Below, in pieces: positions 19,251 to 30,468 of a stretch of DNA of 64,000 bases. The stretch spans positions 372,001-436,000 of the forward strand of contig NZ_JAJDOP010000001.1 in the NCBI RefSeq assembly GCF_020595095.1. The letters run 5' to 3'. Made by a program: the position numbers and the translations under genes. The notes under the pieces are model-generated. The model searched no databases and had not been told where the DNA came from. It was given only the letters and a program-made list of their open reading frames with translations. Origin of the DNA: Microvirga rosea. Its GTDB lineage: Bacteria; Pseudomonadota; Alphaproteobacteria; Rhizobiales; Beijerinckiaceae. Within the stretch, counting starts at the first letter, position 1; each line of letters opens with the position of its first letter.

Positions 19251-19423
19251 TTCCACCGAACGCGAAATGCCGGCTCTGTGGAGAAGCGCATTCGCTTACG
19301 CGAAGCTTTAACAGGCCAGATCGAGCACCTGCTCGAGACGTCTCAGATTATCCTTCTCCTTTGAACCCAATGGATGGCCCTTGTTATTGTTCACAAGAAG
19401 ACCTATATCGGTCTTATCGAATT

Positions 19424-19571
19424 TTGGCCGGACAATCGGGTCGTTTCGCTTTTGGTACTGCCAGGCGCACGTTCGGACTTTCTTACCATTACATCGACGA
19501 ACCGAGACAAGGCCACGCTTTGGCGTGCCTTTGCTCACGTGCATCTGCATCAATCGCGAAAGGTTATCCCA
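19424..19571 (+). ncRNA. Conserved 148-nt 5' leader of csp gene 1
   Basis: From TTGGCCGGACAATCGGG to the base before the csp ATG. The leader of the second csp gene (29,971-30,118, minus strand) has the same length and long identical blocks: TTGGCCGGACAATCGGG, CGTTTCGC, GGCGCACGTTC, ACATCGACGAACC and TGCTCACGTGCA. Noncoding conservation this strong suggests a structured, probably cold-responsive, leader RNA. Boundaries at the 5' end are inferred from where similarity starts. Confidence 0.6.
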
Positions 19572-19781
19572 ATGGTTATGGGCACTGTAAAATTCTATAA
19601 CGACATGAAGGGCTTTGGCTTCATTCAACCAGACGACGGCAGCAAGGATGTGTTCGTCCATGCCACCGCTCTCGAGCGCGCCGGCATGCGCAATCTGGTC
19701 GAGGGTCAGAAGGTTTCCTTCGACACCGCCGAAGATCGCCGCTCCGGCAAGATCGCTGTCAACAACATCCAGACGGCGTAA
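19572..19781 (+). CDS. Cold-shock protein
   Basis: 69 residues, single cold-shock domain ([20 protein letters not shown]). RNP1 KGFGFIQP and RNP2 DVFVHATA are intact, with aromatic residues for single-stranded nucleic-acid binding. Likely an RNA chaperone/antiterminator in the cytoplasm. It carries a long conserved leader upstream and a strong terminator 35 bp downstream. Closest relative in the window is the gene at 29,761. Confidence 0.95.
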
Positions 19782-19816
19782 CCATCAATGGGTGCCTAAA
19801 TTAGGCCCCAGATATG

Positions 19817-19848
19817 AAGCCGCTCCCAGGTGGAGCGGCTTTTTCTTT
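19817..19848 (+). terminator. Rho-independent terminator of csp gene 1
   Basis: Perfect 10-bp stem AAGCCGCTCC / GGAGCGGCTT, loop CAGGT, followed by TTTCTTT. The same stem core ends the other two csp-like genes. Confidence 0.9.
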
Positions 19849-19928
19849 GGTGACTTGCCTTGCCGATGCTCAAACTCAAGCAAGCGGTTCAAGAGTAGGT
19901 CAAATTACGATCTGAGAGGATGAATGGA

Positions 19929-20276
19929 ATGAAGAATAAAGATTTTGGCGACCGTCTCAGTGCCGCTAAGAGTGCAAAGCAGGCCATGACAGCCAAGTTC
20001 CTTCAGAGGCCTGGATACGACGATCCGGCTGTTGCCGATCGGCGGGCAGCCAGAGCCGCTGTGAGTGCTGCACGCGATGCTCGCCTGGCTGAACGCGAGG
20101 CGGCGCGCCGCGCCGAGAACGAGCGCCTTACAGCTGAACGCGAGTTTCTTGCGATAGAACAAGAGGCGCAGGCAAAGCACGCAGCCGCTGAAAAGCAAGA
20201 GAGCCAAGCTAGGCTTGAAATTGAACGCAAGGCAGCCCGCGATGCCCGGTATGCAGCCCGCAAGGCGCGGAAGTAG
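19929..20276 (+). CDS. DUF6481-like Ala/Arg-rich coiled-coil protein
   Basis: 115 residues. The start at 19,929 is preferred over the ATG at 19,920 because GAGAGG is correctly spaced only for the second ATG. Composition is dominated by Ala, Arg, Glu and Lys, and the chain is predicted as a long charged helix (DPAVADRRAARAAVSAARDA onward). The DFGDRLSAAKSAK start and GYDDPAVADRR motif fit the DUF6481 proteins of Hyphomicrobiales. Function unknown; possible RNA- or ribosome-associated role only by charge. Confidence 0.7.
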   Translation: MKNKDFGDRLSAAKSAKQAMTAKFLQRPGYDDPAVADRRAARAAVSAARDARLAEREAARRAENERLTAEREFLAIEQEAQAKHAAAEKQESQARLEIERKAARDARYAARKARK

Positions 20277-20474
20277 GCGATCTCGTTAGGCTTCATTTCA
20301 GGTCAACCGGCCCAGCAAGGAAGCCTCTGACTCTTCTGAGACTGACTATTCAGCCTTGGATGAGAATGTCAGGGTTCGAGGGCAGCTGCATCGTCATGAC
20401 CCTGCCGCGCCCTCACTGACATCGTCGCCGCGTATTGGGCTTATGCCACCTCAAAAAAGTCATCGAGAGCATTG

Positions 20475-20714
20475 ATGTTCAAGCCACCTAACAGAACACG
20501 AACGACCAACGATCCGCGGCAAGCCGCTGAAGCGGCCTTCAAGAAGGCAACTACCAAAATTGCAGAGCCGGTGCCTAAGAAACCCATCGTTCCTGGTGCG
20601 AAAGAGATGGTGACCTTGCGCATCGATCGGGACATCCTCGATCATTTTCAGGAAGCCGGCCCAGGTTGGCAGGACAGAATCAACGAGGCTTTGAGAAAAG
20701 CTGTCGGGCAATAA
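20475..20714 (+). CDS. BrnA-like antitoxin, orphan
   Basis: 79 residues. The C-terminal half (VTLRIDRDILDHFQEAGPGWQDRINEALRKAV) is the ribbon-helix-helix module of BrnA-type antitoxins, including the GPGWQ motif. A TTG codon directly before the ATG is an alternative start. BrnA normally follows and neutralises the BrnT RNase toxin. No BrnT-like frame lies upstream (20,277-20,474) or downstream, so it appears orphaned or acts as a stand-alone regulator. Confidence 0.75.
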   Translation: MFKPPNRTRTTNDPRQAAEAAFKKATTKIAEPVPKKPIVPGAKEMVTLRIDRDILDHFQEAGPGWQDRINEALRKAVGQ

Positions 20715-20832
20715 TCTTGCCCAACAGAACAGGTACATATCGCGTGGGGACAAAGCGGAGCTTGTTTCCCGTGACGCATATCTGACAGGTTAGAGCCGCA
20801 AGCTTCGGTGATTTTTGTAGTCGTCTGTTGCC

Positions 20833-21152
20833 CTAAGGTTCAGCCACGAACTCTGTGAAAGCCTCAAGGCTGGCATAGGGCAGCGTGAATTTCTCGCCCC
20901 GGAATAGCATCGGCACGTCCTGGCCGCCGGCAAAGCCGGAGGTCATCATAGAGCGAACCGTGAAGCTCTCGCCTGCTTCGACATGCCCCAGGGCTCATCA
21001 AGATGATCGATCACGCCGAGTTCACTCAATTTGGCTTCCATAGTCTGCGTTCTGGCATGCGAAGGCATCTGGCGCAGGGCACTCGCGATATCGTCACGCA
21101 TCGTGGCATAGGCTGGATTGCGCACCTTGTAGCGAAGCTCCACATGCAGCAT
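20833..21152 (-). pseudogene. Unrecognised frameshifted gene downstream of sigma factor
   Basis: Two overlapping frames make one plausible protein. MLHVELRYKVRNPAYATMRD onward to HLDEPWG breaks near 20,989. The next frame continues GHVEAGESFTVRSMMTSG, then FAGGQDVPMLFRGEKF to the stop at 20,833. One missing G in a GGGG run accounts for the break. Upstream of the first Met, open reading continues to the sigma factor's stop codon without another start, so the 5' end may also be damaged. I do not recognise the family. It lies 48 bp after, and on the same strand as, the ECF sigma gene. Confidence 0.5.
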
Positions 21153-21200
21153 CGCCTTCGATAAGGCATCCGCCGGTTCACGGACGCCGTTATTCTCTCG

Positions 21201-21896
21201 CTATTCCGGCAGGTCCAGCCGTTCCAGCACCGTTTCCGTGATCCGAGCGCAGCGTGCACCGCCGAACGGAAAGACATCCGCCAGCGTGGACGACAGGGTT
21301 TTGTCGAGAGATTGTCTCAAAAGCCGCCGGGCGCGATGAAGTCTGGTCTTTACGGTTTCAGGACGCAGGCCCAGGTGAGAGGCCGTTTCCTCGATGCTCA
21401 ACTCCTCGATATCCCGGAGCACGAACACCATGCGGAACGGATCGGGCAGCTGATCCACGGCCCGTTCGAGCAAACGTCGCACCTCGGCCCTGGCGGCGGC
21501 GGCTTCCGGATCGCCGTCCTGGCGGCTCGATGACAGGAAGATCACCCGCGTCTCCCCTTGATCGCTGATGGAATCGATGGCCGCGAGATCAACCGACGGC
21601 CGTCGCTGCCGCAGCCGGCCCAGCGCCTCGTTCAAGGTGATGCGCGTCAGCCAAGTCGAGAGTCTCGCCTCGCCTCGAAACTGATCGAGATGGGCAAAGG
21701 CGCGCGCATACGCCTCCTGAACGACATCTTCCGCCTCGCTGTCGTCTCGCAGAACGCTGCGCGCAACGCGATAGAGCTGGCGGTTGTGTCTTTGCATGAT
21801 CTGACGGAAGGCGGCCCGCTCTCGCCCGCGGGCAAGCTCGACCAGGGCCTTGTCATCGAGATCTTCCACTCGCACCGCAACCGCTTGGGACTGCAT
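21201..21896 (-). CDS. ECF RNA polymerase sigma factor
   Basis: 231 residues from MQSQAVAVRVEDL, start supported by AGGAGCTTGACC. Region 2 spans about 20-90 (YRVARSVLRDDSEAEDVVQEAYARAF, FRGEARLSTWLTRITLNEAL) and region 4 about 145-200 (LPDPFRMVFVLRDIEELSIEETASHLGLRPETVKTRLHRARRLL). Region 3 is absent, as expected of group 4 factors. No adjacent anti-sigma gene is recognisable. It sits 68 bp downstream of the cupredoxin gene and is likely in the same operon with the DUF5602-like gene. Confidence 0.9.
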   Translation of the reverse strand: MQSQAVAVRVEDLDDKALVELARGRERAAFRQIMQRHNRQLYRVARSVLRDDSEAEDVVQEAYARAFAHLDQFRGEARLSTWLTRITLNEALGRLRQRRPSVDLAAIDSISDQGETRVIFLSSSRQDGDPEAAAARAEVRRLLERAVDQLPDPFRMVFVLRDIEELSIEETASHLGLRPETVKTRLHRARRLLRQSLDKTLSSTLADVFPFGGARCARITETVLERLDLPE

Positions 21897-21964
21897 GGTC
21901 AAGCTCCTGTGCCTGGCGATGAGATGGACGAAAACCATAAAGGTTCCCGGGGCCTTTCGCATCC

Positions 21965-22491
21965 TCAGGAATTACGCCGCACGACGCCTTGGCGCATGAT
22001 CTCATCGACGGATGGAAACGCGTGGAGCGCCGCATCCGAGATGGGCTCTGCGCCCCGCGCAGCGGCTGCGGCCTGGCGATGATCCTCCGGCTGGCCGACA
22101 ATGATGCGGCCAACCATCCCGGCATGCTCGTGGGGGATGCAGAAGAAGTCGTAGGTTCCCTCCACCGTCAGCGTGACCGAGAAGCTCTCGTTCGGCAGCA
22201 GATAATCCGAATTCCATGGCTGTGCGCTTTCGGGAATGCGCAAGGGATGCCCGAGATTCGTCGGATGATAGGCCGTTGCCGTGTGCGAGTTTCCAGGATC
22301 GAGGTTGAGCCAGCGCACGGTCCGGCCGGGCGCGATGCGAAGACCGATGGGGTTGAACCAGACATGAGAGCCATCGGCATTGCCCTGCATCCGGATCTCC
22401 ACCGGCTCATCGGCCAGAGGAAACCGAGGCCATGCAAGACCGGCGAGGAGTCCCCGCCGATCCGCAAGACCTGTCTGCGCGACGCGATCAC
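21965..22491 (-). pseudogene. Tat-exported cupredoxin, frameshifted near the N-terminus
   Basis: A GTG start overlaps the preceding gene's stop (GTGA) and begins V-IASRRQVLRIGG, a twin-arginine signal. The frame breaks near 22,453; one G added to the GGGG run continues it as GGLLAGLAWPRFPLADEPVE. The domain then reads as a plastocyanin/azurin-type cupredoxin: HVWFNPIGLRIAPGRTVRW and NSHTATAYHP (first His), then YDFFCIPHEHAGMVGRI. The Cys-His-Met set completes a type 1 copper site. Expected to carry electrons or bind copper in the periplasm. If the missing base is a sequencing error, the gene is intact. Confidence 0.8.
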
Positions 22492-22907
22492 TTTCCGGCC
22501 ACCCGTGTCTCGTCGGCTTTCGAAACATGCCAGAGAACGATATGCGCGTGGGGCTTCTCGACGCCGGGATGGCCCGCATTGAAATAGACATCCACATGGT
22601 CGACCTTGCCGCCCGGCGCGGCGAGATCGTCGAAACGCTTGTCCTTGTCGGACAGATCCTCGATGGGAAGCATGTAGACCGTGCTGACGAGGCGGCCATC
22701 CCGGTCATAGGCCAGGAAAGGACCCGCCGGCAGTGTCGCGGGATCGACATAGAGCTGTCCCAGCCCTGGCAGGAAATCAGGCAGCTTGACCAGGGTGCTG
22801 ACCTTTTTATAGGCGCCCGCCGGCGGGGCCTTCTCGACCTGGTCCGCCGCCAGGGCCGGGAAGCTGAAGGCGACGGCAAGAGCAAGCGTCGCGAAAGCGG
22901 TCCTCAT
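22488..22907 (-). CDS. Secreted DUF5602-like protein
   Basis: 139 residues with a signal peptide (MRTAFATLALAVAFSFPALA). The mature part has FLPGLGQLYVDPATLPAGP, FLAYDRDGRLVSTVYMLP and GKVDHVDVYFNAGHPGVEKP, then HAHIVLWHV. This resembles the TTHB210/DUF5602 family as I recall it, whose Thermus member is controlled by an ECF sigma/anti-sigma system. That would suit its position at the head of an operon with a cupredoxin and an ECF sigma factor. Histidines in the HPGVEKPHAHIVLWH region could bind metal (inference). Family call is moderate. Confidence 0.7.
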   Translation of the reverse strand: MRTAFATLALAVAFSFPALAADQVEKAPPAGAYKKVSTLVKLPDFLPGLGQLYVDPATLPAGPFLAYDRDGRLVSTVYMLPIEDLSDKDKRFDDLAAPGGKVDHVDVYFNAGHPGVEKPHAHIVLWHVSKADETRVAGK

Positions 22908-22990
22908 GGCATCCTCCGTTGATGCGCCGGGCCTGCTTTCGGCCCGCACATGCCCATTGGATGGGAGGCGCCGCGAAAGGTTCCCGGATT

Positions 22991-24178
22991 TCAGCGCTTC
23001 GCCAGGAGCGCCAGGTATGACAGGAGGCCCGCGGCAACCAGCAGGACTGCACTGGCGCCGAAGGTGCTCTGGTATCCGCTCCCGTCGAACAGGATGCCAC
23101 CCACGGTCGCGCCCAAGGTGATCGCCAGTTGGATGGCCGCGACCATCAGCCCGCCGCCGGCCTCGGCATCCTCCGGCAGGACCCGCGTGAGCCATGTATT
23201 CCACGCCACAGGTGCCGGGGTGCCGATCAGGCCCCACATTCCGAGCAGGAAGGCGGTTCCGGCAAGCCCGTTTCCAAAGACGATCAAACCGACCGCAATG
23301 GCCGCCATGCTCAGCGGAATGGCAATCATGGCGCCATAGACGTTCGACCTCAGGAAGGATCCGATGAGGAACGTTCCCAGGAGGCCGGTCACGCCCAGGA
23401 GCAGCAGGACGAGCGACAAGGTCGCGACATCGACGCCGGTAACGTTTTCGAGGAACGGCCGCAGATAGGTGAACAGCGCGAACTGCCCCATGAAGAACAG
23501 CGTCACCGCCGCCATGCCGTAGGCGACCACCGGCCGGCGGAGCAACCTGAAGACGTTGCCCGAGCCCCTCCGCCCTCCGGAAGGCATGGACGGAAAGCTC
23601 ATGAGCAGCCAGGCCAGAGCAATCGCCGCCAGAGGCACCACGCAGAAGAAGGCGCCGCGCCATCCCACATACCCGCCGACAAAGCTTCCCAGCGGCGCGG
23701 CAACGGTTGCGGCCAGGGCGGTTCCGCCCTGCAGGATCGCCAGCGCGCGTGGCACACGATCCTCAGGCACGAGGCGCATCACCGCCGCCGTCGACATGGA
23801 CCAGAACCCGCCGATGGCCATGCCGAGAACCGCTCGCCCCGCCATGAGAGCCGCGTAATTCGGCGCGAGGGCGACGACTGAACCCGAGACGATCATCAGA
23901 AGGGTCAGGGCCGCCAGGACGGTCCGCCGGTCACGGCCCGTCGTCAGGCCCGAGACGAACAGGCTCGTGAGCACGGCAAAAACGCCCGAGATCGAGATGG
24001 CCTGCCCGGCTTGGCCTTCCGTCAGGTGGAGATCGGAAGCGATCGGCGTCAGAAGGCTGACGGGCATGAACTCGGAAGCGACGAGCACCATGCAGCACAA
24101 CGCCATCGCGAAAACCGCGCCCCAGGCCGGAGAACGGTCGTATGCCAGATCACGTGAAGAAGCGGTTCCTGCTGTCAT
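22991..24178 (-). CDS. MFS efflux transporter
   Basis: 395 residues from MTAGTASSRDLAYDRSPAWG, with twelve hydrophobic spans. The motif between TM2 and TM3 (SGLTTGRDRRTVLAALTLLM) and the antiporter-type TM5 pattern (LQGGTALAATVAAPLGSFVGG) mark the drug:H+ antiporter/AraJ-NepI group. Predicted to export small molecules from the cytoplasm. Ribosome site is weak (GGGGCTTTTG). It is divergent from a LysR regulator, with an inverted repeat in between. Confidence 0.85.
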   Translation of the reverse strand: MTAGTASSRDLAYDRSPAWGAVFAMALCCMVLVASEFMPVSLLTPIASDLHLTEGQAGQAISISGVFAVLTSLFVSGLTTGRDRRTVLAALTLLMIVSGSVVALAPNYAALMAGRAVLGMAIGGFWSMSTAAVMRLVPEDRVPRALAILQGGTALAATVAAPLGSFVGGYVGWRGAFFCVVPLAAIALAWLLMSFPSMPSGGRRGSGNVFRLLRRPVVAYGMAAVTLFFMGQFALFTYLRPFLENVTGVDVATLSLVLLLLGVTGLLGTFLIGSFLRSNVYGAMIAIPLSMAAIAVGLIVFGNGLAGTAFLLGMWGLIGTPAPVAWNTWLTRVLPEDAEAGGGLMVAAIQLAITLGATVGGILFDGSGYQSTFGASAVLLVAAGLLSYLALLAKR

Positions 24179-24301
24179 CAAAAGCCCCACGAATGCGATC
24201 GGGTGCCTCGGAGAGCACCCGGATTTGTGTAAAAGGAGAAAGGTCGCGCCCACGGAATCCCGCGTCGGGGGTCGACATGTCATGGCGCGACGGGCCAGAA
24301 C

Positions 24302-24328
24302 CTAATCCATCCCACTCGGATCGATTAG
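24302..24328. promoter_or_regulatory. Candidate LysR operator
   Basis: Inverted repeat CTAATC-N15-GATTAG in the 192-bp divergent region, 43 bp before the LysR start. Arm symmetry, T...A content and position fit a LysR-type recognition site controlling the MFS gene and itself. Confidence 0.45.
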
Positions 24329-24370
24329 ATGCTAAGACATGGATGAACTTATGAGCGGGGCTCATGAATC

Positions 24371-25291
24371 ATGCGTGAGAACATCAGCGACCTGATCGCT
24401 TTCCTCATGGTCGCCAGGGAGCGCAGTTTCACACGGGCCGCGGCGCAGCTCGGCGTCTCCCAATCGGCTCTGAGCCACACCGTGCGCGGCCTCGAGGAGC
24501 GGCTCGGCGTGCGGCTCCTGACCCGCACCACCCGCAGCGTGGCGCCGACGCAGGCGGGAGAGCGCCTGCTTCGGACGGCGGGCCCGCGGCTGGACGAAAT
24601 CGAGGCTGAACTCGAGGGATTGAGCGAGTTCCGCGAGAAGCCGGCCGGCACGATCCGGATCACCGCCGGCGACCATGTCACCGAGACGGTCCTCTGGCCG
24701 AAGCTGGCGAGGTTCCTGCCCGACTTTCCCGACATCAAGGTTGAGATCGCCCTCGATCAGGCCCTGACGAACATCGTCGAGCAGCGGTTCGACGCGGGGG
24801 TACGGCTCGGCGAGCAGGTCGCCAAGGACATGATCGCCGTGCGGATTAGCTCCGACGTTCGGTTTGCCGTCGTCGGAGCGCCATCCTACTTCGCGAACCG
24901 ACCGTTCCCCACGACGCCCCAGGATCTCGTCGGCCATTCCTGCATCAACCTGCGCCTTCAAACCTTAGGCGGGCTTTATGCTTGGGAATTCGAGCGTGAC
25001 GGACGCGAGATGGCCGTGCGCGTGGATGGCCAGCTCGTATTCAACGGCATCTTCCAGGTCCTGAACGCGGCGCTTGACGGGTTTGGGCTCGCCCATGTGC
25101 CGCAGGACATCGCGCAGTCCCACATTGCCGCCGGGCGTCTCATCCGTGTGCTCGAGGATTGGTGCCCGCCGTGGTCCGGGTATCATCTTTACTATCCGAG
25201 CCGCCGGCAATCTTCGGCTGCTTTCAAGCTGATCGTCGAGGCTCTGCGCCACCAGGATCGAGGGGTCCCGGGGCCTCAGGCCAATTCATGA
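24371..25291 (+). CDS. LysR-family transcriptional regulator
   Basis: 306 residues. N-terminal winged helix (1-62: FLMVARERSFTRAAAQLGVS, QSALSHTVRGLEERLGVRLL) followed by the periplasmic-binding-like sensor domain. GTIRITAGDHVTETVLWPKL, RFDAGVRLGEQVAKDMIAVR and the C-terminal LYYPSRRQSSAAFKLIVEAL are typical of the DmlR/PgrR-like branch. It is divergent from the MFS transporter and likely regulates it; the alcohol dehydrogenase downstream may also be a target. Confidence 0.9.
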   Translation: MRENISDLIAFLMVARERSFTRAAAQLGVSQSALSHTVRGLEERLGVRLLTRTTRSVAPTQAGERLLRTAGPRLDEIEAELEGLSEFREKPAGTIRITAGDHVTETVLWPKLARFLPDFPDIKVEIALDQALTNIVEQRFDAGVRLGEQVAKDMIAVRISSDVRFAVVGAPSYFANRPFPTTPQDLVGHSCINLRLQTLGGLYAWEFERDGREMAVRVDGQLVFNGIFQVLNAALDGFGLAHVPQDIAQSHIAAGRLIRVLEDWCPPWSGYHLYYPSRRQSSAAFKLIVEALRHQDRGVPGPQANS

Positions 25292-25418
25292 ATCCTGCTC
25301 ATAGGGTCATATCATAATCAGGCTCTAGTGCTATGCAGCGCGGCCGCTATCTCAGAACCAACGATCACGCTACCTTCCCAGCATCCTCCTGTCCCACCCT
25401 CAGATAAGGATCTTCCGC

Positions 25419-26471
25419 ATGGCCATCAAAGCCTACGGCGCCTATGCCGGCGACAAGCCGCTGGAGCCCATCGATATCGCGCGGCGCCAGCCCGGCCCCA
25501 ACGATGTTCAAATCGACATTGCGTATTGCGGCGTCTGCCATTCCGACCTTCACCAGGTTCGTTCGGAATGGGGCGGCACCATCTATCCTTGCGTACCGGG
25601 CCACGAGATCGTCGGCCATGTGACGGCAGTCGGCAGCGAGGTCACCAAATTCAAGGTTGGCGATACGGTCGGCGTCGGCTGCATGGTGGACAGCTGCCAG
25701 CGGTGCATCTCCTGCGATGATGGAGAGGAGCAGTATTGCGAGCACGGCTTTACCGGCACCTATAACTCCCCGACACCGGATGCCCCGGGCCATACCCTCG
25801 GCGGGTACTCGCAGCGGATCGTCGTCAAGGACAGGTTCGTTCTGAAGATCAACCACCCGCAGGAGCAGCTCGCCGCGGTCGCGCCGCTGCTGTGCGCCGG
25901 CATCACGACCTATTCACCGCTGCGCCACTGGAAAGCGGGCCCGGGCAAGAAGGTCGGGATCGTGGGAATCGGCGGCCTCGGCCACATGGGCATCAAGCTC
26001 GCTCATGCCATGGGAGCACACACCGTCGCCTTCACCACATCCGACTCCAAGCGCAAGGATGCCCGGGCACTGGGCGCCGACGAGGTGATCGTGTCGCGAA
26101 ATGCCGAGGAGATGGAGGCGCACGCGGGCAGCTTCGATTTCATCCTCAACACGGTCGCGGCCAGCCACGATCTCGACGCCTATACCCGTCTGCTGAAGCG
26201 GGATGGAACGATGACTCTTGTGGGCGTTCCGGAGAATCCGCATCCCTCGCCCGATATCTCCACGCTGATCTTCAAGCGTCGGTCCATCGCCGGCTCGTTG
26301 ATCGGCGGCATTGCCGAAACCCAGGAGATGCTGGATTTCTGTGCCGAAAGAGGCATCGTGGCGGATATCGAGATGATCCCCGTGCAGAAGATCGACGAAG
26401 CCTACGACCGCATGCAGAAGAGCGACGTCCGGTACCGCTTCGTGATCGACAGCGCTTCGCTCGCTGCCTGA
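25419..26471 (+). CDS. NAD(P)-dependent alcohol dehydrogenase, YahK/CAD type
   Basis: 350 residues, AAGGATCTTCCGC before ATG. Catalytic zinc ligands Cys40-His41 region (CGVCHSDLH) and His62-Glu63 (GHEIVG); structural zinc cysteines 93, 96, 99 and 107; cofactor motif GIGGLGHMGIKLA. Full-length cinnamyl-alcohol-dehydrogenase family, similar to E. coli YahK/YjgB aldehyde reductases, which reduce diverse aldehydes with NADPH. It lies 127 bp after the LysR gene; the intervening DNA may carry its own promoter. Confidence 0.9.
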   Translation: MAIKAYGAYAGDKPLEPIDIARRQPGPNDVQIDIAYCGVCHSDLHQVRSEWGGTIYPCVPGHEIVGHVTAVGSEVTKFKVGDTVGVGCMVDSCQRCISCDDGEEQYCEHGFTGTYNSPTPDAPGHTLGGYSQRIVVKDRFVLKINHPQEQLAAVAPLLCAGITTYSPLRHWKAGPGKKVGIVGIGGLGHMGIKLAHAMGAHTVAFTTSDSKRKDARALGADEVIVSRNAEEMEAHAGSFDFILNTVAASHDLDAYTRLLKRDGTMTLVGVPENPHPSPDISTLIFKRRSIAGSLIGGIAETQEMLDFCAERGIVADIEMIPVQKIDEAYDRMQKSDVRYRFVIDSASLAA

Positions 26472-26513
26472 AGGCTGCCTGCGCGTCCAGGCTCGTCAAT
26501 GGAGCCCGGAACT

Positions 26514-26550
26514 GCAAAAGGCCCAGACGGAACAGAAACTTCGTCTGGGC
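26514..26550 (-). terminator. Terminator between adh and rpsU
   Basis: Nine-bp stem GCCCAGACG / CGTCTGGGC with a 12-nt loop. Read leftward it is followed by CTTTTGC, so it suits rpsU; convergent adh transcripts also meet it. Confidence 0.6.
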
Positions 26551-26567
26551 ACGACGATTCTCGGCGC

Positions 26568-26589
26568 GACGGCCGCGTGTGCGGCCGTC
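26568..26589 (+). terminator. GC-rich hairpin downstream of adh
   Basis: Perfect stem GACGGCCGC / GCGGCCGTC with loop GTGT, followed by CTTTGG. The short T run makes termination plausible but not certain. Confidence 0.5.
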
Positions 26590-26640
26590 CTTTGGCGCAT
26601 CAGGCTTCCGGCACCTTTGTGACGCAAGCCTGAGAGGGGG

Positions 26641-26937
26641 CTATCTCGCCGCTCCAGGGGCCGACGGCGCCGCACCGGGACGCCCGCCTCGCCCCGGACC
26701 GCGGGCATCTCTGGCAGGCCGCTTGGGTGCTGCGATCAATCCATCGCGAATGCCCTGCTTGCGTGCGAGCTTACGCGCCCGGCGAACGGCTTCGGCCTTT
26801 TCACGGGTCTTGCGCTCCGAGGGCTTTTCATAGGCCTTTCGCGCTTTCATCTCACGGAAGATGCCCTCTCGCTGCATCTTCTTCTTGAGCGCTCTCAGAG
26901 CTTGATCGACGTTGTTGTCCCTGACGAAAACCTGCAA
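26641..26937 (-). CDS. rpsU: 30S ribosomal protein S21
   Basis: 98 residues starting [20 protein letters not shown], the invariant S21 start. It uses TTG as initiation codon, with AGGA upstream. The core (residues 1-60) matches bacterial S21; the C-terminal 35 residues are a Pro/Gly/Arg/Ala-rich tail common in alphaproteobacteria. S21 joins the 30S platform near the anti-Shine-Dalgarno and aids initiation. Its neighbours are cold-shock and small stress genes, consistent with growth-condition control. Confidence 0.95.
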
Positions 26938-27009
26938 TGGATGTCCTATCTTTAAGGGTGGGTGTGTGCACTCGCCATCCGTTTTCTTGGGAGGCGAGCG
27001 GGGAAGGGC

Positions 27010-27204
27010 TCAGGCGCCGCGAATTTCGCTCTCTCGAACCGCTCTCTCGATCATGCCGGATTTGATCCTGTACGAGAGTTCTCCCGTCTGATCGGCGGGC
27101 ATCAACCGAACGATCTCGTAAACGCTCGCGGAGTCCATCCGGTTGTCTGAAATGCCCGGCTGCTTCAGCCGGACCATCTGTTTGATTTTGAACTTGTAAG
27201 ACAT
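27010..27204 (-). CDS. Small SH3-barrel-like protein, paralogue 1
   Basis: 64 residues from MSYKFKIKQMVRLKQPG. Pattern: early KxxQxVRL strand, SVYEIVRLMPAD, YRIKSGMIERAVRESEI. The motif Y-x-I-V ... Y-R-I-K-S ... E-R-x-x-x-E recurs in the proteins at 28,682 and 29,023. Compact all-beta KOW/SH3-like fold inferred. No signal peptide. Function unknown; the three genes cluster with cold-shock genes. Confidence 0.65.
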   Translation of the reverse strand: MSYKFKIKQMVRLKQPGISDNRMDSASVYEIVRLMPADQTGELSYRIKSGMIERAVRESEIRGA

Positions 27205-27273
27205 TGGAATCTTTTTTGAATGGGAAAGGTCGAGATCGTGCATGGGACAGTCGCGTTCGCTGCCCACCTAATC

Positions 27274-27474
27274 TTACCGGACACGCTTGATGCTGGTGAT
27301 GGTGCCTTCAGGCAGAGAGCCTTTTTCCTGTTGGGCACGGGCGATCAAGCTGACCGCGCGGTTGTCGCTGGCCTTTGCAGGATTGTCGATCCACAAATAA
27401 GCCGTGCGGGCGTCGTCATAGTTCACGGCGAAGATGACCGACTTGGCAGGGCTGCTTTTCCGGAACATGCTCAT
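27274..27474 (-). CDS. Small conserved-looking hypothetical protein
   Basis: 66 residues, with a strong ribosome site (AAGGAGGTTCGC before ATG), which is the main evidence that it is real. Sequence (MSMFRKSSPAKSVIFAVNYD, then DDARTAYLWIDNPAKAS) has no recognised domain. No membrane segment or signal peptide. It lies between two csp-related units on the same strand and about 70 bp upstream of the SH3-like paralogue 1 gene, perhaps cotranscribed with it. Confidence 0.65.
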   Translation of the reverse strand: MSMFRKSSPAKSVIFAVNYDDARTAYLWIDNPAKASDNRAVSLIARAQQEKGSLPEGTITSIKRVR

Positions 27475-27514
27475 GCGAACCTCCTTGTTGTGGTTATTGG
27501 CGATAGAATTTCAT

Positions 27515-27540
27515 GAAAAAACCGCTCCGTCGGGGAGCGG
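27515..27540 (-). terminator. Terminator of the divergent csp-like gene
   Basis: Read leftward: CCGCTCC-CCGAC-GGAGCGG followed by TTTTTTC. Same stem core as the terminators of the two normal csp genes. Confidence 0.85.
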
Positions 27541-27566
27541 CCTGATGATGATGCGCCGGTTCATGT

Positions 27567-27776
27567 TTAGATCGTCTCGATGTTATGAGCGGCCATCATG
27601 CCCGACCGACGGTCCCTGACGGTTTCGAAGGAAACCCGCTGTCCCTCGACGAGGTCGCACAGACCGGCACGCTGGATCGCAATTCCATTGACGAGAACAG
27701 CCTGGCCGCCATGATCGGGCTGAATCAGACCCAACCCCTCCGCTTCATCGTAGGATTTCACTTTTCCGATGATCAT
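27567..27776 (-). CDS. Degenerate cold-shock-domain protein
   Basis: 69 residues, the same length as the other two csp products and alignable end to end (MIIGKVKSYDEAEGLGLIQP, ...LVEGQRVSFETVRDRRSGMM). Key RNA-binding residues are changed: KFY is KSY, RNP1 KGFGFI is EGLGLI, and RNP2 VFVH is VLVN. The hydrophobic core and the C-terminal EDRRSG/VRDRRSG strand remain. It keeps the csp terminator and a decayed form of the conserved leader, so it arose by csp duplication. It probably folds as a cold-shock barrel but is unlikely to bind single-stranded RNA in the standard way. Confidence 0.8.
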   Translation of the reverse strand: MIIGKVKSYDEAEGLGLIQPDHGGQAVLVNGIAIQRAGLCDLVEGQRVSFETVRDRRSGMMAAHNIETI

Positions 27777-27907
27777 CCGAAATTCCTTTCAGGGTTTCAG
27801 GGGCACATGCACAGATCCTCGCGATGAAGCGAGCTGCGTTGCTCTCGAAGTTCGAAGAGAGGAGCGCGCGCCTGAAAAGAAAGGCGAAAAGGGCCACATG
27901 TCCGGCC
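27777..27907 (-). ncRNA. Decayed csp leader
   Basis: Read leftward, the upstream region begins GGCCGGACA, then TTTTCGCCTT, AGGCGCGCG and TGTGCATGTGC. These match in order the blocks of the two 148-nt csp leaders, but much changed and shorter. Confidence 0.4.
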
Positions 27908-28127
27908 GATATCGATATCGGAAGATAAGCCGAGTAGAGGTCTATTTCAAGTCGGCGATCCAATAAAGGCGGGATGAGTTTTGTGACTCTTGCAGCTCTG
28001 CCAGTTATTTAGACGCGGGACATCAGTTGACTGGGCCCTGAGTGGGCCTCAAAGCTTCGTTCAAGTCCGGAAATATCGGTGTATAGAGGCAGGAGGAGCC
28101 GGCAAAGGGCTCCACGAGGAACTTTCA
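27908..28127. other. Divergent intergenic region
   Basis: About 220 bp between the degenerate csp leader and the small secreted protein gene. AT-richer than surroundings. No supported gene or strong repeat seen. Confidence 0.4.
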
Positions 28128-28367
28128 TTGAAAATTTTTATTGTTGCCGCCGCATTGGGTTTATTGGCCCTGCCACAATCCGGGCATTCAGAGGAAAAGG
28201 CTAGAGCCGAGGCAGGCGATCCCAGACCTGTGAAGGTTTCTCCCACTGATCCGGCGGCTCGGTCCAACGCGATTGCCAGAGAGGCCCGTGACAAGGCTGA
28301 GGCCTTGGAGCGTGCCCGGGACCGCAAAATGAGACAGATCACGAAAGGCATCTGCACCGGATGCTGA
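28128..28367 (+). CDS. Small secreted hypothetical protein
   Basis: 79 residues from a TTG start with GAGGAACTTTCA upstream. Signal peptide (first residue then KIFIVAAALGLLALPQSGHS). The mature part is charged and Ala/Arg-rich (ARSNAIAREARDKAEALERA) and ends in CTGC, giving two cysteines. A longer in-frame extension upstream lacks a ribosome site. Family unknown; presumed periplasmic. Confidence 0.55.
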   Translation: MKIFIVAAALGLLALPQSGHSEEKARAEAGDPRPVKVSPTDPAARSNAIAREARDKAEALERARDRKMRQITKGICTGC

Positions 28368-28681
28368 TTTCCGCCTGAGACGTAAATCACCAGAAGCCGA
28401 TCTGTGCGCCCTATGCTCGACGCCCAGGACGGGTTTGGAGAACAGACGGCCTGGGTTCGTGCGCTTTTGAAAATGGCCGACCAGACATTAGCCTGCTTGC
28501 GCTGTCAGAAGCTCCAGTGGCCGGGACCGTTTGCCAATGTCGTCGACCCAGGAAAAACCCGCTGCCAGTATCAGCTCGGCGTTATCCTGATCATTGGAAG
28601 CGTCCATGTTCGATGACGCAAAGTCGGGAAGATGCGCCCATCCCCTTGCATCAGAGATTGTCTCCTCGGGATTTTAATCTC
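28368..28681. other. Intergenic region
   Basis: About 310 bp between convergent small genes. Open frames exist on the plus strand, but their codons are antisense to the SH3-like gene or lack ribosome sites, so I do not support a gene here. Confidence 0.4.
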
Positions 28682-28891
28682 TTATCTGAACATTGTGAAC
28701 GAGGTAGTGAGCTGGTTCTCATATGCGACACGGCTATAAACCTCGCCGATGCTCTTGATCTCATAGCGCGGAGCTTCATCGCCCGAAGGCAGATGCTTGA
28801 TGATCACGAAGTCACCGCTCCAAGATGGTCCTAAGCATCGCTTATCGGTAAAAGTCACGCTTTGTCCGCACGGATAGAGATGCGCTGACAT
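28682..28891 (-). CDS. Small SH3-barrel-like protein, paralogue 2
   Basis: 69 residues, AAAGGACCACATC before ATG. GQSVTFTDKR, WSGDFVIIKHLPSGDEAPRY and YEIKSIGEVYSRVAYENQL align with the proteins at 27,010 and 29,023. Predicted compact beta-barrel with a ligand-facing YEIKS strand. No signal peptide; function unknown. Confidence 0.65.
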   Translation of the reverse strand: MSAHLYPCGQSVTFTDKRCLGPSWSGDFVIIKHLPSGDEAPRYEIKSIGEVYSRVAYENQLTTSFTMFR

Positions 28892-29022
28892 GATGTGGTC
28901 CTTTTGTGGTCTTTAAGGGCAAGATGCGCCGAAAGAGCTGTCACCAGGCAAACAGCACAATGAACAGAATGAACGAGAAAACGGCAGCCATGCTGGCTGT
29001 TGAAAGCCATGTTTGCTGAAGT

Positions 29023-29388
29023 CTATCGGTAAACGGAGAAGCGCTGGGCATGGAGCTCTGTCCCTCCGGACTGCCGAAACCATGGCGCGAGAGGGCGTTC
29101 AGCGGAAGGTTTGAGATTCAGATTGGCTGGCTGCAGGCAGGACAGGGCTTCGGTCAATTGTTCTCCGGATTGCTGGACCGCTGGACGGGGCTGCGGTGTC
29201 CGGCAAAGTTCATGTTCGCCTGCCATGCGAATCTCGTGACGATGAACCGAAGCAATCCTGTACTGTGGCTCGGACGCTTTCGTTTCCATGCAGGAAACGA
29301 TTGTATACGGAGCTTTCCACATGAAGTGGGAATGCCGTTTCTCTGCATAAAGGACGATTTCCCCAACCGCGAACCGATGGGTTTCCAT
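29023..29388 (-). CDS. Small SH3-barrel-like protein, paralogue 3, with tail
   Basis: 121 residues from METHRFAVGEIVLYAEKRH; AAGGAATGCGCC supports the start over a longer upstream frame. Residues 7-62 carry the family pattern (APYTIVSCMETKASEPQYRI, ASVHRHEIRMAGEHEL). Residues 63-121 form a Pro/Gln/Leu tail not found in the other two paralogues. Function unknown. Confidence 0.6.
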   Translation of the reverse strand: METHRFAVGEIVLYAEKRHSHFMWKAPYTIVSCMETKASEPQYRIASVHRHEIRMAGEHELCRTPQPRPAVQQSGEQLTEALSCLQPANLNLKPSAERPLAPWFRQSGGTELHAQRFSVYR

Positions 29389-29686
29389 GGCGCATTCCTT
29401 CCTTGTCAGGCTCATGCAGGCCGCTATGCACAAGCAAGGGAGCACCGATGCGGTCAATAAAAGCTTTCGGCTTAAGAGTAGGATCTCAGGGGAAACGCGT
29501 CTCGGGACCGCTGAGATGGCCGGATCAACCTCATGAGGCCAATCGAAGTCAAAATAAGTCCTCCAAGGTAAAGAGCCAGTGGCGGGAGAAGTTCCATCCA
29601 TCGGGATGAAGACACCATTGATGGCTGCGTGGCTGACGTCCCGGAACGGTTGTGTTCAAGCCAATTCCCGGCTCTCGTTGCGCAAA
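29389..29686. other. Intergenic region
   Basis: About 300 bp between the SH3-like gene's start and the csp terminator. It must contain the promoter for the SH3-like gene; no convincing coding sequence. Confidence 0.4.
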
Positions 29687-29717
29687 ATAAAAAAAAGCCG
29701 CTCGGGAAGAGCGGCTT
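29687..29717 (-). terminator. Rho-independent terminator of csp gene 2
   Basis: Read leftward: AAGCCGCTC-TTCCC-GAGCGGCTT followed by TTTTTTAT. Strong, and nearly identical to the csp gene 1 terminator. Confidence 0.9.
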
Positions 29718-29760
29718 TCAAGAGGCGCAGCGAACCACGCCAGTCGTCAGGACCAGAGAC

Positions 29761-29970
29761 TTAGGCGGTCTGGATGTTGTTGACGGCAACCTTGCCGCTG
29801 CGGCGGTCTTCAGCGGTGTCGAAAGTCACCTTCTGGCCTTCGCGAAGGCCACGGATGCCGGCGCGCTCAAGAGCGGTCGCGTGGACGAACACGTCCTTGT
29901 CGCCGTTGTCCGGCTGAATGAAGCCAAAGCCTTTTTGGTCGTTATAGAACTTAACGGTGCCCGAGTTCAT
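29761..29970 (-). CDS. Cold-shock protein
   Basis: 69 residues ([20 protein letters not shown]). RNP1 KGFGFIQP and RNP2 DVFVHATA intact. About 60 of 69 residues match the csp product at 19,572. AAGGATATTCCC precedes ATG. It has the long conserved leader upstream and its own terminator, so it forms a monocistronic cassette. Predicted RNA chaperone. Confidence 0.95.
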
Positions 29971-30118
29971 GGGAATATCCTTGGTATGTCTGTGTCAGTG
30001 CACGTGAGCACGAGAATGCGCGAAAGCAGGCCTCGTACTCGGGTTCGTCGATGTTTGGGGAGAGCGTCTGAACGTGCGCCTAGCATGCCAAGGCGAAACG
30101 GCCCGATTGTCCGGCCAA
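29971..30118 (-). ncRNA. Conserved 148-nt 5' leader of csp gene 2
   Basis: Same length and ordered identical blocks as the leader at 19,424-19,571. It begins TTGGCCGGACAATCGGG on the minus strand and ends at the csp ATG. The blocks are separated by diverged but equal-length stretches, as expected of a structured RNA. Confidence 0.6.
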
Positions 30119-30468
30119 ATGTCGATGAACGCAATTTAGTGCGCTCATGCGGCAAATACAAGGCAGGCTCGCAGAAGAAGTTTTGCAGGCCGGTCGGCCG
30201 CTATTTTCCAGGGTCTGACGAATTATTCCGGATTTAGCCAGTTTTCCCTTGTGAAACTAGGCTCACTGATCCATATAGCACTTATCCAACCGACATGTTC
30301 GGCCTGCTCTCCTTAGCTCCGATTGAGCGCCGAGCCTGCTTTCCGTTCCCATCGATTGTCATTTCATGGTCCGCTCGGACAGGCCAAAGCCTGTCGATGA
30401 ACCGTAGCCATGGCTCCAAACACAACAATTGCCGCTCGATCTCCCATCGAGGCGGCGAAAGGATTTTT
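30119..30468. other. Intergenic region upstream of csp gene 2
   Basis: About 350 bp between the csp leader and the 48-residue protein gene. It should hold both divergent promoters. No supported gene. Confidence 0.4.

What the first reader, a model, noticed from the sequence alone, without database searches (positions are those of the whole stretch)
19424..30118. Conserved 148-nt leader shared by two dispersed csp genes
The regions before the csp ATGs at 19,572 and (minus strand) 29,970 have equal length and ordered identical blocks (TTGGCCGGACAATCGGG, CGTTTCGC, GGCGCACGTTC, ACATCGACGAACC, TGCTCACGTGCA) separated by diverged but equal-length DNA. No reading frame is conserved. The third csp-like gene has a decayed version. 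Its csp partner genes also share the same terminator stem. This looks like a structured leader, perhaps a cold-sensing RNA of a type not described for this group; the enterobacterial cspA leader is the known analogue.
Basis: partly seen in the sequence, partly recalled or inferred. Interest (0 to 1): 0.8.

Follow-up and report, generated by a model that had tools for sequence, protein, structure and literature searches.

The report
Shared RNA leader of cold-shock genes
Cold-shock genes in many bacteria of one large order begin with the same leader, predicted to be copied into the messenger RNA, in which the two arms of two hairpins change in step; it likely switches cold-shock protein production with temperature, as a differently built leader does in E. 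coli.

Summary
In detail: both csp genes carry a 148-nt block with the quoted identical pieces, though two spacers differ by 2-3 nt. The block is a real, widespread element. Covariance models find it before all five single-domain csp genes of this genome (also the supposedly decayed third), in 128 of 397 genomes of the order and 12 genomes of other orders of the class; in a phylum sample all 18 matching genomes were of the order. Of 194 aligned matches 191 directly precede a csp frame.

A promoter-like site ends just upstream, so the block is predicted 5' UTR. It has hairpins SL1, SL2, SL3 and a conserved stretch that avoids structure. The arms of SL2 and of SL3 co-vary strongly; the SL2 5' arm also co-varies, more weakly, with the Shine-Dalgarno region, implying two exclusive folds: site open or site covered.

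Rfam has no family for it. The E. coli cspA leader may work alike but is not recognisably related. Cold control is inferred. Against it: a strict column-wise covariation test found nothing, computed folding shows no common temperature trend, and one of the five leaders lacks the switch pairing. Verdict: a new csp-leader family, possibly a cold-type RNA switch.

The parts
19381..19409 (+). Predicted promoter of csp A: TTGTTA (19381-19386), 17 nt, TATATC (19404-19409)
   Evidence: Read from the sequence; such a site in 168 of 186 leaders; not measured
19416..19571 (+). Leader of csp A, predicted 5' UTR
   Evidence: R1 and R2 matches 6.4e-40 and 1.2e-26; leader A is in both training sets
19426..19442 (+). 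SL1 of leader A (GGCC..GGTC hairpin)
   Evidence: Local fold z -2.05 over 187 leaders; too little variation for a co-variation test
19447..19467 (+). SL2 of leader A
   Evidence: Arms co-vary; local fold z -1.69
19444..19449 (+). UUUCGC, the part of the SL2 5' side that can pair with the SD region (anti-SD) of leader A
   Evidence: Duplex -13.0 kcal/mol; family test
19470..19498 (+). Conserved stretch that avoids structure, leader A
   Evidence: Local fold z +0.79 and +0.62 over 186 and 181 leaders
19504..19536 (+). SL3 of leader A
   Evidence: Arms co-vary, z -18.3; local fold z -1.62
19556..19563 (+). GCGAAAGG, SD region of csp A and partner of the anti-SD
19572..19781 (+). csp A, cold-shock protein, 69 aa
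   Evidence: Pfam CSD, E 2.1e-21
19817..19846 (+). Terminator-like hairpin of csp A
   Evidence: Fold
30133..30161 (-). Predicted promoter of csp B: TTGTAT (30161-30156), 17 nt, TAAATT (30138-30133)
   Evidence: Read from the sequence; pattern test
29971..30126 (-). Leader of csp B, predicted 5' UTR
   Evidence: R1 and R2 matches 8.6e-35 and 4.0e-26; leader B is in both training sets
30077..30095 (-). SL2 of leader B; its CCUUGG (30093-30088) is the anti-SD
   Evidence: Duplex -12.9 kcal/mol with CCAAGG
30046..30074 (-). Conserved stretch that avoids structure, leader B
30006..30040 (-). SL3 of leader B
29978..29984 (-). CCAAGGA, SD region of csp B
29761..29970 (-). csp B, cold-shock protein, 69 aa
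   Evidence: Pfam CSD, E 1.9e-21
29689..29718 (-). Terminator-like hairpin of csp B
   Evidence: Fold
27777..27916 (-). Leader of csp C, diverged
   Evidence: R1 match 2.1e-5, not in R1's training set
27567..27776 (-). csp C, diverged cold-shock protein, 69 aa
   Evidence: Pfam CSD, E 2e-9
27515..27546 (-). Terminator-like hairpin of csp C

Best explanation
These csp genes share a conserved leader of about 140-160 nt, predicted to be the 5' UTR of the mRNA, in which the arms of hairpins SL2 and SL3 change in step, and which likely acts as a cis-acting RNA switch that raises csp translation in the cold. Shown by comparison: one element that almost always stands directly before a csp frame; co-varying arms of SL2 and SL3; a conserved stretch between them that avoids structure. 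Predicted: a promoter that ends a few nt before the element. Supported more weakly: the SL2 5' side also co-varies with the Shine-Dalgarno region; the two pairings use the same bases and exclude each other. Inferred mechanism: SL2 would form first on the nascent RNA and leave the ribosome site free; once the 3' part is made the leader would refold so that the SL2 strand covers the site; in the cold this refolding would be too slow, so new mRNA stays open. The conserved unpaired stretch would be a binding place, perhaps for Csp proteins (autoregulation, or help with refolding) or the ribosome.
For: Link to csp: in this genome the five leader matches are exactly the leaders of the five single-domain csp genes; 191 of 194 aligned matches directly precede a csp frame, or 155 of 157 if the 33 named loci that I had picked for their csp are left out. 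Spread: 128 of 397 genomes of the order, 49 of 142 genera. Promoter-like site in 168 of 186, in 161 of these ending 3-7 nt before AUCGA. Co-variation by arm swapping, 119 leaders under 70% identity: SL2 z -13.6, SL3 z -18.3, SL2 5' side with SD region z -5.4; among nearest relatives, 163 leaders: p 3e-9, 3e-21, 2.8e-5; in two rough halves of the set the last is p 0.021 and 0.008. The unpaired stretch is less structured than shuffles. Growing transcripts form SL2 before the SD exists; in the full leader SL2 pairing falls from 0.50-0.56 to 0.22-0.24 of its bases. Barriers to refolding are higher in the cold for leaders A, B, C and C33. E. coli precedent: the cspA leader keeps in the cold a fold like that of transcription intermediates (PMC6386945, passages).
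Against: A column-pair test with a phylogenetic null found no significant pair. The anti-SD signal is modest: in the 12-nt map (z -5.0) noise reaches +4.4, one labelled control had z -2.1, and in one half of the set a control (58-76 with SD) also reached p 0.045. Whole-leader MFE z averages only -0.9, and SD openness differs little from shuffles (0.396 against 0.451 at 37 C, 0.387 against 0.414 at 10 C; 178 of 187 leaders). At equilibrium the SD of leader C is closed in the cold and opens on warming (unpaired 0.21 at 5 C, 0.50 at 42 C) and C33 goes the same way (0.36 to 0.57), against the simple reading. Leader C34 has almost no anti-SD pairing (-4.3 kcal/mol) and no barrier. The family median barrier has no temperature trend (13.8, 16.1, 13.8 kT at 10, 28, 37 C), and for leader B the estimate (about 2 h at 37 C, 2 days at 28 C) is too slow for closing without help. 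No expression data.
Confidence: 0.45

Rival explanations
1. The leader is a structured RNA but no refolding switch: the hairpins would flank and expose the conserved single-stranded stretch for a binder (Csp itself, Hfq, a ribonuclease or the ribosome) that sets mRNA stability or autoregulation.
For: The stretch is conserved and avoids structure (z +0.79, +0.62). SL2 and SL3 are far better supported than the anti-SD pairing. Computed SD openness has no common temperature trend.
Against: The SL2 5' side pairs with the SD region 2.0-4.0 kcal/mol better than five other tested segments and co-varies with it; SL2 sequence differs between paralogues while this pairing is kept in four of five.
Confidence: 0.35
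2. An ordinary heat-melting RNA thermometer (ROSE or fourU type): the SD is covered when cold and opens when warm.
For: Leaders C and C33 open on warming at computed equilibrium.
Against: Leaders A and B stay 58-76% paired at the SD from 5 to 42 C; the mean over 178 leaders is flat (0.387, 0.388, 0.396 at 10, 25, 37 C); the gene is a cold-shock gene.
Confidence: 0.07
3. A DNA element (promoter or regulator site) and not an RNA.
For: Conservation starts next to a promoter-like site.
Against: Compensating arm changes in SL2 and SL3; conserved parts reach far downstream of the predicted start; almost only csp genes carry it.
Confidence: 0.04
4. Mere paralogy: csp A and B are recent copies and the blocks are left over.
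For: A 222-nt inverted repeat, 79% alike, covers both genes.
Against: The same blocks are found in 119 leaders under 70% identity and in 49 genera of the order.
Confidence: 0.02

Closest known systems
E. coli cspA 5' UTR / Rfam RF01766 cspA thermoregulator
   Same: Long 5' UTR of a csp gene (159 nt in E. coli as given in PMC6719143, passages; here about 140-160, predicted); possibly the same logic of a nascent fold kept in the cold (PMC6386945, passages).
   Different: RF01766 does not match the leader; its sub-threshold match lies on coding and 3' sequence. R2 does not find the E. coli leader. In E. coli the warm fold pairs the 5' UTR with the coding region; here the partner would be the SD region.
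Agrobacterium tumefaciens cspA 5' UTR C1_109596F, 'thermosensor' (PMC3738593, passages)
   Same: csp 5' UTR in the same order, transcribed with the gene.
   Different: 227 nt; named from an Rfam hit; its sequence was not fetched here, so kinship is untested.
Caulobacter crescentus cspA/cspB (PMC8552747 and PMC4551563, passages; the 2012 paper they cite is not held)
   Same: Alphaproteobacterial csp genes with mainly post-transcriptional cold induction.
   Different: Leader sequence not compared here.
csp 3' UTR family of Rhizobiales (PMC3927594, passages)
   Same: Conserved RNA attached to cold-shock genes of the same order (29 of 33 in that paper).
   Different: It is at the 3' end; this element is at the 5' end.
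S. aureus CspA autoregulation (PMC5815144; title seen in a reference list)
   Same: A Csp acting on its own mRNA leader is one option for the conserved unpaired stretch.
   Different: Different phylum; not compared.

Membership tests
Rfam RF01766 cspA thermoregulator | Score at or above the gathering cut-off (78 bits) | tested here: not met
   44.3 and 39.6 bits with leader included; none at the cut-off in the window
Rfam RF01766 cspA thermoregulator | Match in the leader itself | tested here: not met
   Leaders A and B alone: no RF01766 match up to E 10; coding and 3' part alone: 53.1 bits, model positions 170-428
Enterobacterial cspA-type leader | Cold box (UGACGUACAGA, recalled) | tested here: inconclusive
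   Best 8 of 11 in the family consensus, reached by 10.75% of shuffles; longer pieces picked after looking, 9 of 11 and 13 of 19, by 2.25% and 0.4%
Enterobacterial cspA-type leader | Long 5' UTR before a single-domain csp gene | tested here: met
   Predicted start 156 nt before the ATG of csp A and B; start not measured
Enterobacterial cspA-type leader | Nascent fold kept in the cold, site covered when warm | tested here: inconclusive
   Computed for A and B in the right direction; not for the family median, C34, or equilibrium of C and C33
Enterobacterial cspA-type leader | Recognisable homology | tested here: not met
   R2 finds no match at the E. coli cspA leader
ROSE / fourU RNA thermometers | SD opens on warming | tested here: inconclusive
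   Flat for A, B and C34, opening for C and C33; flat on average; computed only
Cold-induced post-transcriptional csp control | More Csp after a cold shift through the leader | not testable with these tools
   Needs reporter and RNA experiments

The most novel reading that the evidence does not exclude
A new family of cold-sensing RNA leaders, independent in origin from the enterobacterial cspA leader, in which one strand (the SL2 5' side) is shared between an early local hairpin and the ribosome-binding site, so that slow refolding in the cold leaves csp mRNA open. Two bacterial groups would then have arrived at the same kinetic trick with different RNAs, and four of the five leader-bearing csp genes of one genome would run on versions of the switch whose pairing sequences differ from gene to gene but match within each gene.
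Probability: 0.3. Interest if true: 0.8.

Novelty: new variant of a known kind. Interest (0 to 1): 0.6.

Why it matters
Rfam release 15 has no family for it, although a model of it matches about a third of the sampled genomes of an order rich in soil and plant bacteria. It would give alphaproteobacterial cold-shock control a concrete, testable RNA, and a second case, not recognisably related to E. coli cspA, in which to ask whether folding kinetics rather than melting is how bacteria sense cold. It also warns that 'cspA thermosensor' labels taken from Rfam can rest on the coding region: here RF01766 scores the coding and 3' part and not the leader.

Tried and rejected
Column-pair co-variation (G test with APC) on a structure-blind MAFFT alignment with substitutions re-placed on a tree: nothing significant, best pair E about 0.7 and not a base pair. 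The variable hairpins are poorly aligned there, so I changed to arm swapping, which needs only anchors; this was a second test after a negative first one and should be read as such. RNAalifold on 69 or 52 leaders gave partial or conflicting folds. A 5'-end helix (AUCGA..UUUGG with CCAAA..UCGA) reached z -2.7 in the coarse swap test, close to one control at -2.1, and failed among nearest relatives. The GCACGU/ACGUGC helix is conserved in the first set (94.6% of cells paired) and reached z -2.7 and -4.3, but was not supported among nearest relatives, where the sign was opposite. Pairing of the middle stretch with the SD: z 0.0, though p 0.045 in one half of the set. Simple thermometer: no trend on average. 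Kinetic trend across the family: none in the median. Cold box: weak. Kinship with E. coli by R2: none. Twelve named plasmid csp loci, picked by me from 60 listed of 1815 records: four matched (Microvirga sp. VF16 4.2e-31, Methylobacterium oryzae 3.2e-13, Skermanella mucosa 6.9e-6, Rhizobium sp. Y9 1.4e-5), eight had no match up to E 10. Literature: nine searches listed nothing that by title or abstract describes this leader family; the library lacks most subscription journals. Controls ran from d -0.29 to +0.90; my notebook entry gives a narrower range, which is wrong.
Full report
WHAT IS THERE. The window holds three single-domain csp genes: A (19572-19781, +), B (29970-29761, -) and C (27776-27567, -). 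Upstream of A and B, 148 nt run from the first quoted block to the ATG, and all five quoted blocks are present in order; two of them are shifted by 2-3 nt. Terminator stems of A, B, C and of a csp on contig C33 share a CCGCTC/GAGCGG-like core; the csp on C34 does not.

HOW WIDESPREAD. By a regular expression 86 of the 117 lie before a csp start, most in Microvirga, others in Enterovirga, Rhodoplanes and other Alphaproteobacteria; many of the rest are in unrelated genes and phyla and look like chance. This scan fixed the first block, so its invariance in those rows is by selection; the later blocks were not selected. A covariance model of 52 such leaders (R1; it contains leaders A and B, not C) gave six matches in this genome: five are exactly the leaders of the five single-domain csp genes, A, B, C (2.1e-5), one on C33 (5.1e-18) and one on C34 (2.5e-9); the sixth is a 12-bit fragment. 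The four remaining CSD hits lie two by two in longer frames and have no leader. R1 matched 76 of 297 genomes of the order at E 0.01. A second model from 96 matches (R2) matched 128 of 397 genomes of the order at E 0.001 (49 of 142 genera), 74 of 149 of the family, 15 of 385 of the class of which 12 are outside the order, and 18 of 299 of a phylum sample, all 18 in the order (E 0.01 in these three). Large searches use stricter filters that lose weak matches. Of twelve named plasmid csp loci four matched. By its named relatives the window is nearest Microvirga (inference; the genome itself is unnamed).

WHAT IT PRECEDES. I fetched part of the matches. Of 194 aligned matches, 187 have a csp frame at the model end by a rule, and four more show a csp start in the printed frame: 191 of 194. 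The other three are two decayed csp-like frames with GTG starts (L150, L155) and one place without csp (L014:2914). Thirty-three of the loci, with 37 of the matches, had been picked after a csp filter; without them it is 155 of 157.

TRANSCRIBED? In 168 of 186 leaders a TTG-N3-[15-19]-TA site lies upstream (shuffled mean 25.5, maximum 35); in 161 of the 168 it ends 3-7 nt before AUCGA. From -60 to -39 positions carry at most 0.09 bits; at AUCGA they carry 1.6-1.9 bits, partly because the models start there. This predicts that the element is the start of the mRNA. It has not been measured.

ANATOMY. From 187 distinct leaders aligned without structure: AUCGA; SL1, a GGCC..GGCC hairpin (local fold z -2.05); SL2, a hairpin of very variable sequence (z -1.69); a conserved stretch GUUCAGAC..CUCUCCAAA.AUCGAC that is less structured than shuffles (z +0.79; +0.62 for its inner part); SL3, a long variable hairpin (z -1.62); then the SD region without local structure (z -0.05). 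Pair counts on the model-fitted alignments agree (86-87% of cells paired against 23-43% when slid; 220 and 247 double changes against 62 and 57 in shuffles) but such alignments lean to the model.

DO THE ARMS CHANGE IN STEP? The column-pair test with a phylogenetic null gave nothing. I then compared the pairing energy of each leader's own arms with arms swapped between leaders. With 119 leaders under 70% identity: SL2 z -13.6, SL3 z -18.3, SL2 5' side with SD region z -5.4; the three labelled controls lay between -2.1 and +1.3. In a map of 325 window pairs SL3, SL2 and then the SL2 strand with the SD region come first, but the positive noise tail reaches +4.4. Swapping only with the ten nearest relatives (163 leaders under 90% identity): SL2 p 3e-9, SL3 p 3e-21, anti-SD/SD mean d -1.11, p 2.8e-5; eight controls ran from -0.29 to +0.90, and two other candidate helices failed. 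In two rough halves of the set, split by me by locus number, the anti-SD effect has p 0.021 (87 leaders) and 0.008 (76); one control in the first half also reached p 0.045. This segment pairs with the SD region 2.0-4.0 kcal/mol better than the five other segments tried. Within this genome the pairing differs by gene but matches: UUUCGC/GCGAAA in A (-13.0 kcal/mol), CCUUGG/CCAAGG in B (-12.9), UUCUUUUCAGG/CCUGAAAGGAA in C (-16.1), CUUU..CACUG/CAGUG.AAAG in C33 (-14.3); C34 has almost none (-4.3). SL1 varies too little to test.

HOW IT MAY WORK. SL2 and the SL2-strand/SD helix use the same bases. In transcripts that end before the SD, 0.50-0.56 of the SL2 bases are paired within SL2 on average; with 33 nt of coding sequence added to the full leader this is 0.22-0.24, while 0.31-0.34 pair with the 3' part. 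In A it goes from 0.66 to 0, in B from about 0.6 to 0.04-0.07; C34 stays at 0.7; C33 keeps 0.52 at 10 C but 0.07 at 28 C. The SD of A and B is 58-76% paired with the SL2 region at every temperature from 5 to 42 C, so equilibrium melting cannot be their sensor. C and C33 instead open on warming, against the simple reading. A kinetic sensor fits A and B: estimated barriers 31.5 and 33.7 kT at 10 C against 19.0 and 22.7 at 37 C, also 20.6 against 15.1 for C and 18.0 against 15.1 for C33. Against this, the family median has no temperature trend (13.8, 16.1, 13.8 kT at 10, 28, 37 C), C34 has no barrier, and for B the estimate is too slow even when warm, so a chaperone such as Csp would have to help. 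The prefactor (1e6 per s) is my assumption. The E. coli cspA leader is described as keeping, in the cold, a fold like that of transcription intermediates (PMC6386945, passages); the scheme here has the same logic. That the genes are cold-regulated at all is inferred from gene and precedent.

KNOWN OR NEW. Rfam 15 shows one match at its cut-off in the window, a tRNA. The leaders alone match nothing relevant up to E 10. RF01766 scores coding and 3' part of csp A alone at 53.1 bits, more than with the leader (39.6) and below its cut-off of 78. R2 does not find the E. coli leader. Likeness to the cold box is near chance for the 11-mer; pieces chosen after looking do better. In print, an Agrobacterium cspA 5' UTR carries the name thermosensor from an Rfam hit, csp 3' UTRs form a family in the order, and Caulobacter csp genes are post-transcriptionally cold-induced. 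Nine full-text searches listed no description of this leader family.

VERDICT. The element and its csp link are solid; that it is a structured RNA is very likely; the two-state pairing has moderate support; its response to cold is untested.

Noticed in passing
window 19920-20276 (+): A DUF6481 protein (PF20089, E 6.3e-23) directly follows csp A; the same pair stands on a Methylobacterium oryzae plasmid, and 18 of 194 leader loci show a DUF6481 relative downstream although only 108 of the 194 hold 700 nt there.
   Followed up: partly
window 26641-26937 (-): Ribosomal protein S21 (PF01165, E 2.4e-19) in the stretch between the csp genes.
   Followed up: no
window 20472-20711 (+): A BrnA-type antitoxin (PF14384, E 1.6e-15) shortly after csp A; the toxin partner was not looked for.
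   Followed up: no
L150:1501-1651 and L155:1501-1655: Good leader matches before decayed csp-like frames with GTG starts, perhaps csp pseudogenes.
   Followed up: no
L014:2914-3064: A leader match in Microvirga calopogonii without a csp frame after it; the same locus has two further leaders.
   Followed up: no
L014, L015, L033, L215: Two or three leaders, each with its own csp apart from the case above, lie within a few kb of each other.
   Followed up: no
window 19787-19855 (+) and 29680-29742 (-): Weak Rfam suhB/mmgR matches over the csp terminator regions (22.4 and 18.3 bits against a cut-off of 41).
   Followed up: no
MAFFT columns 21 and 29 of the 187-leader alignment (SL1 loop and the base after SL1): The best co-varying column pair is not a base pair (TT or CC, E about 0.7): clade signal or a tertiary contact.
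   Followed up: no
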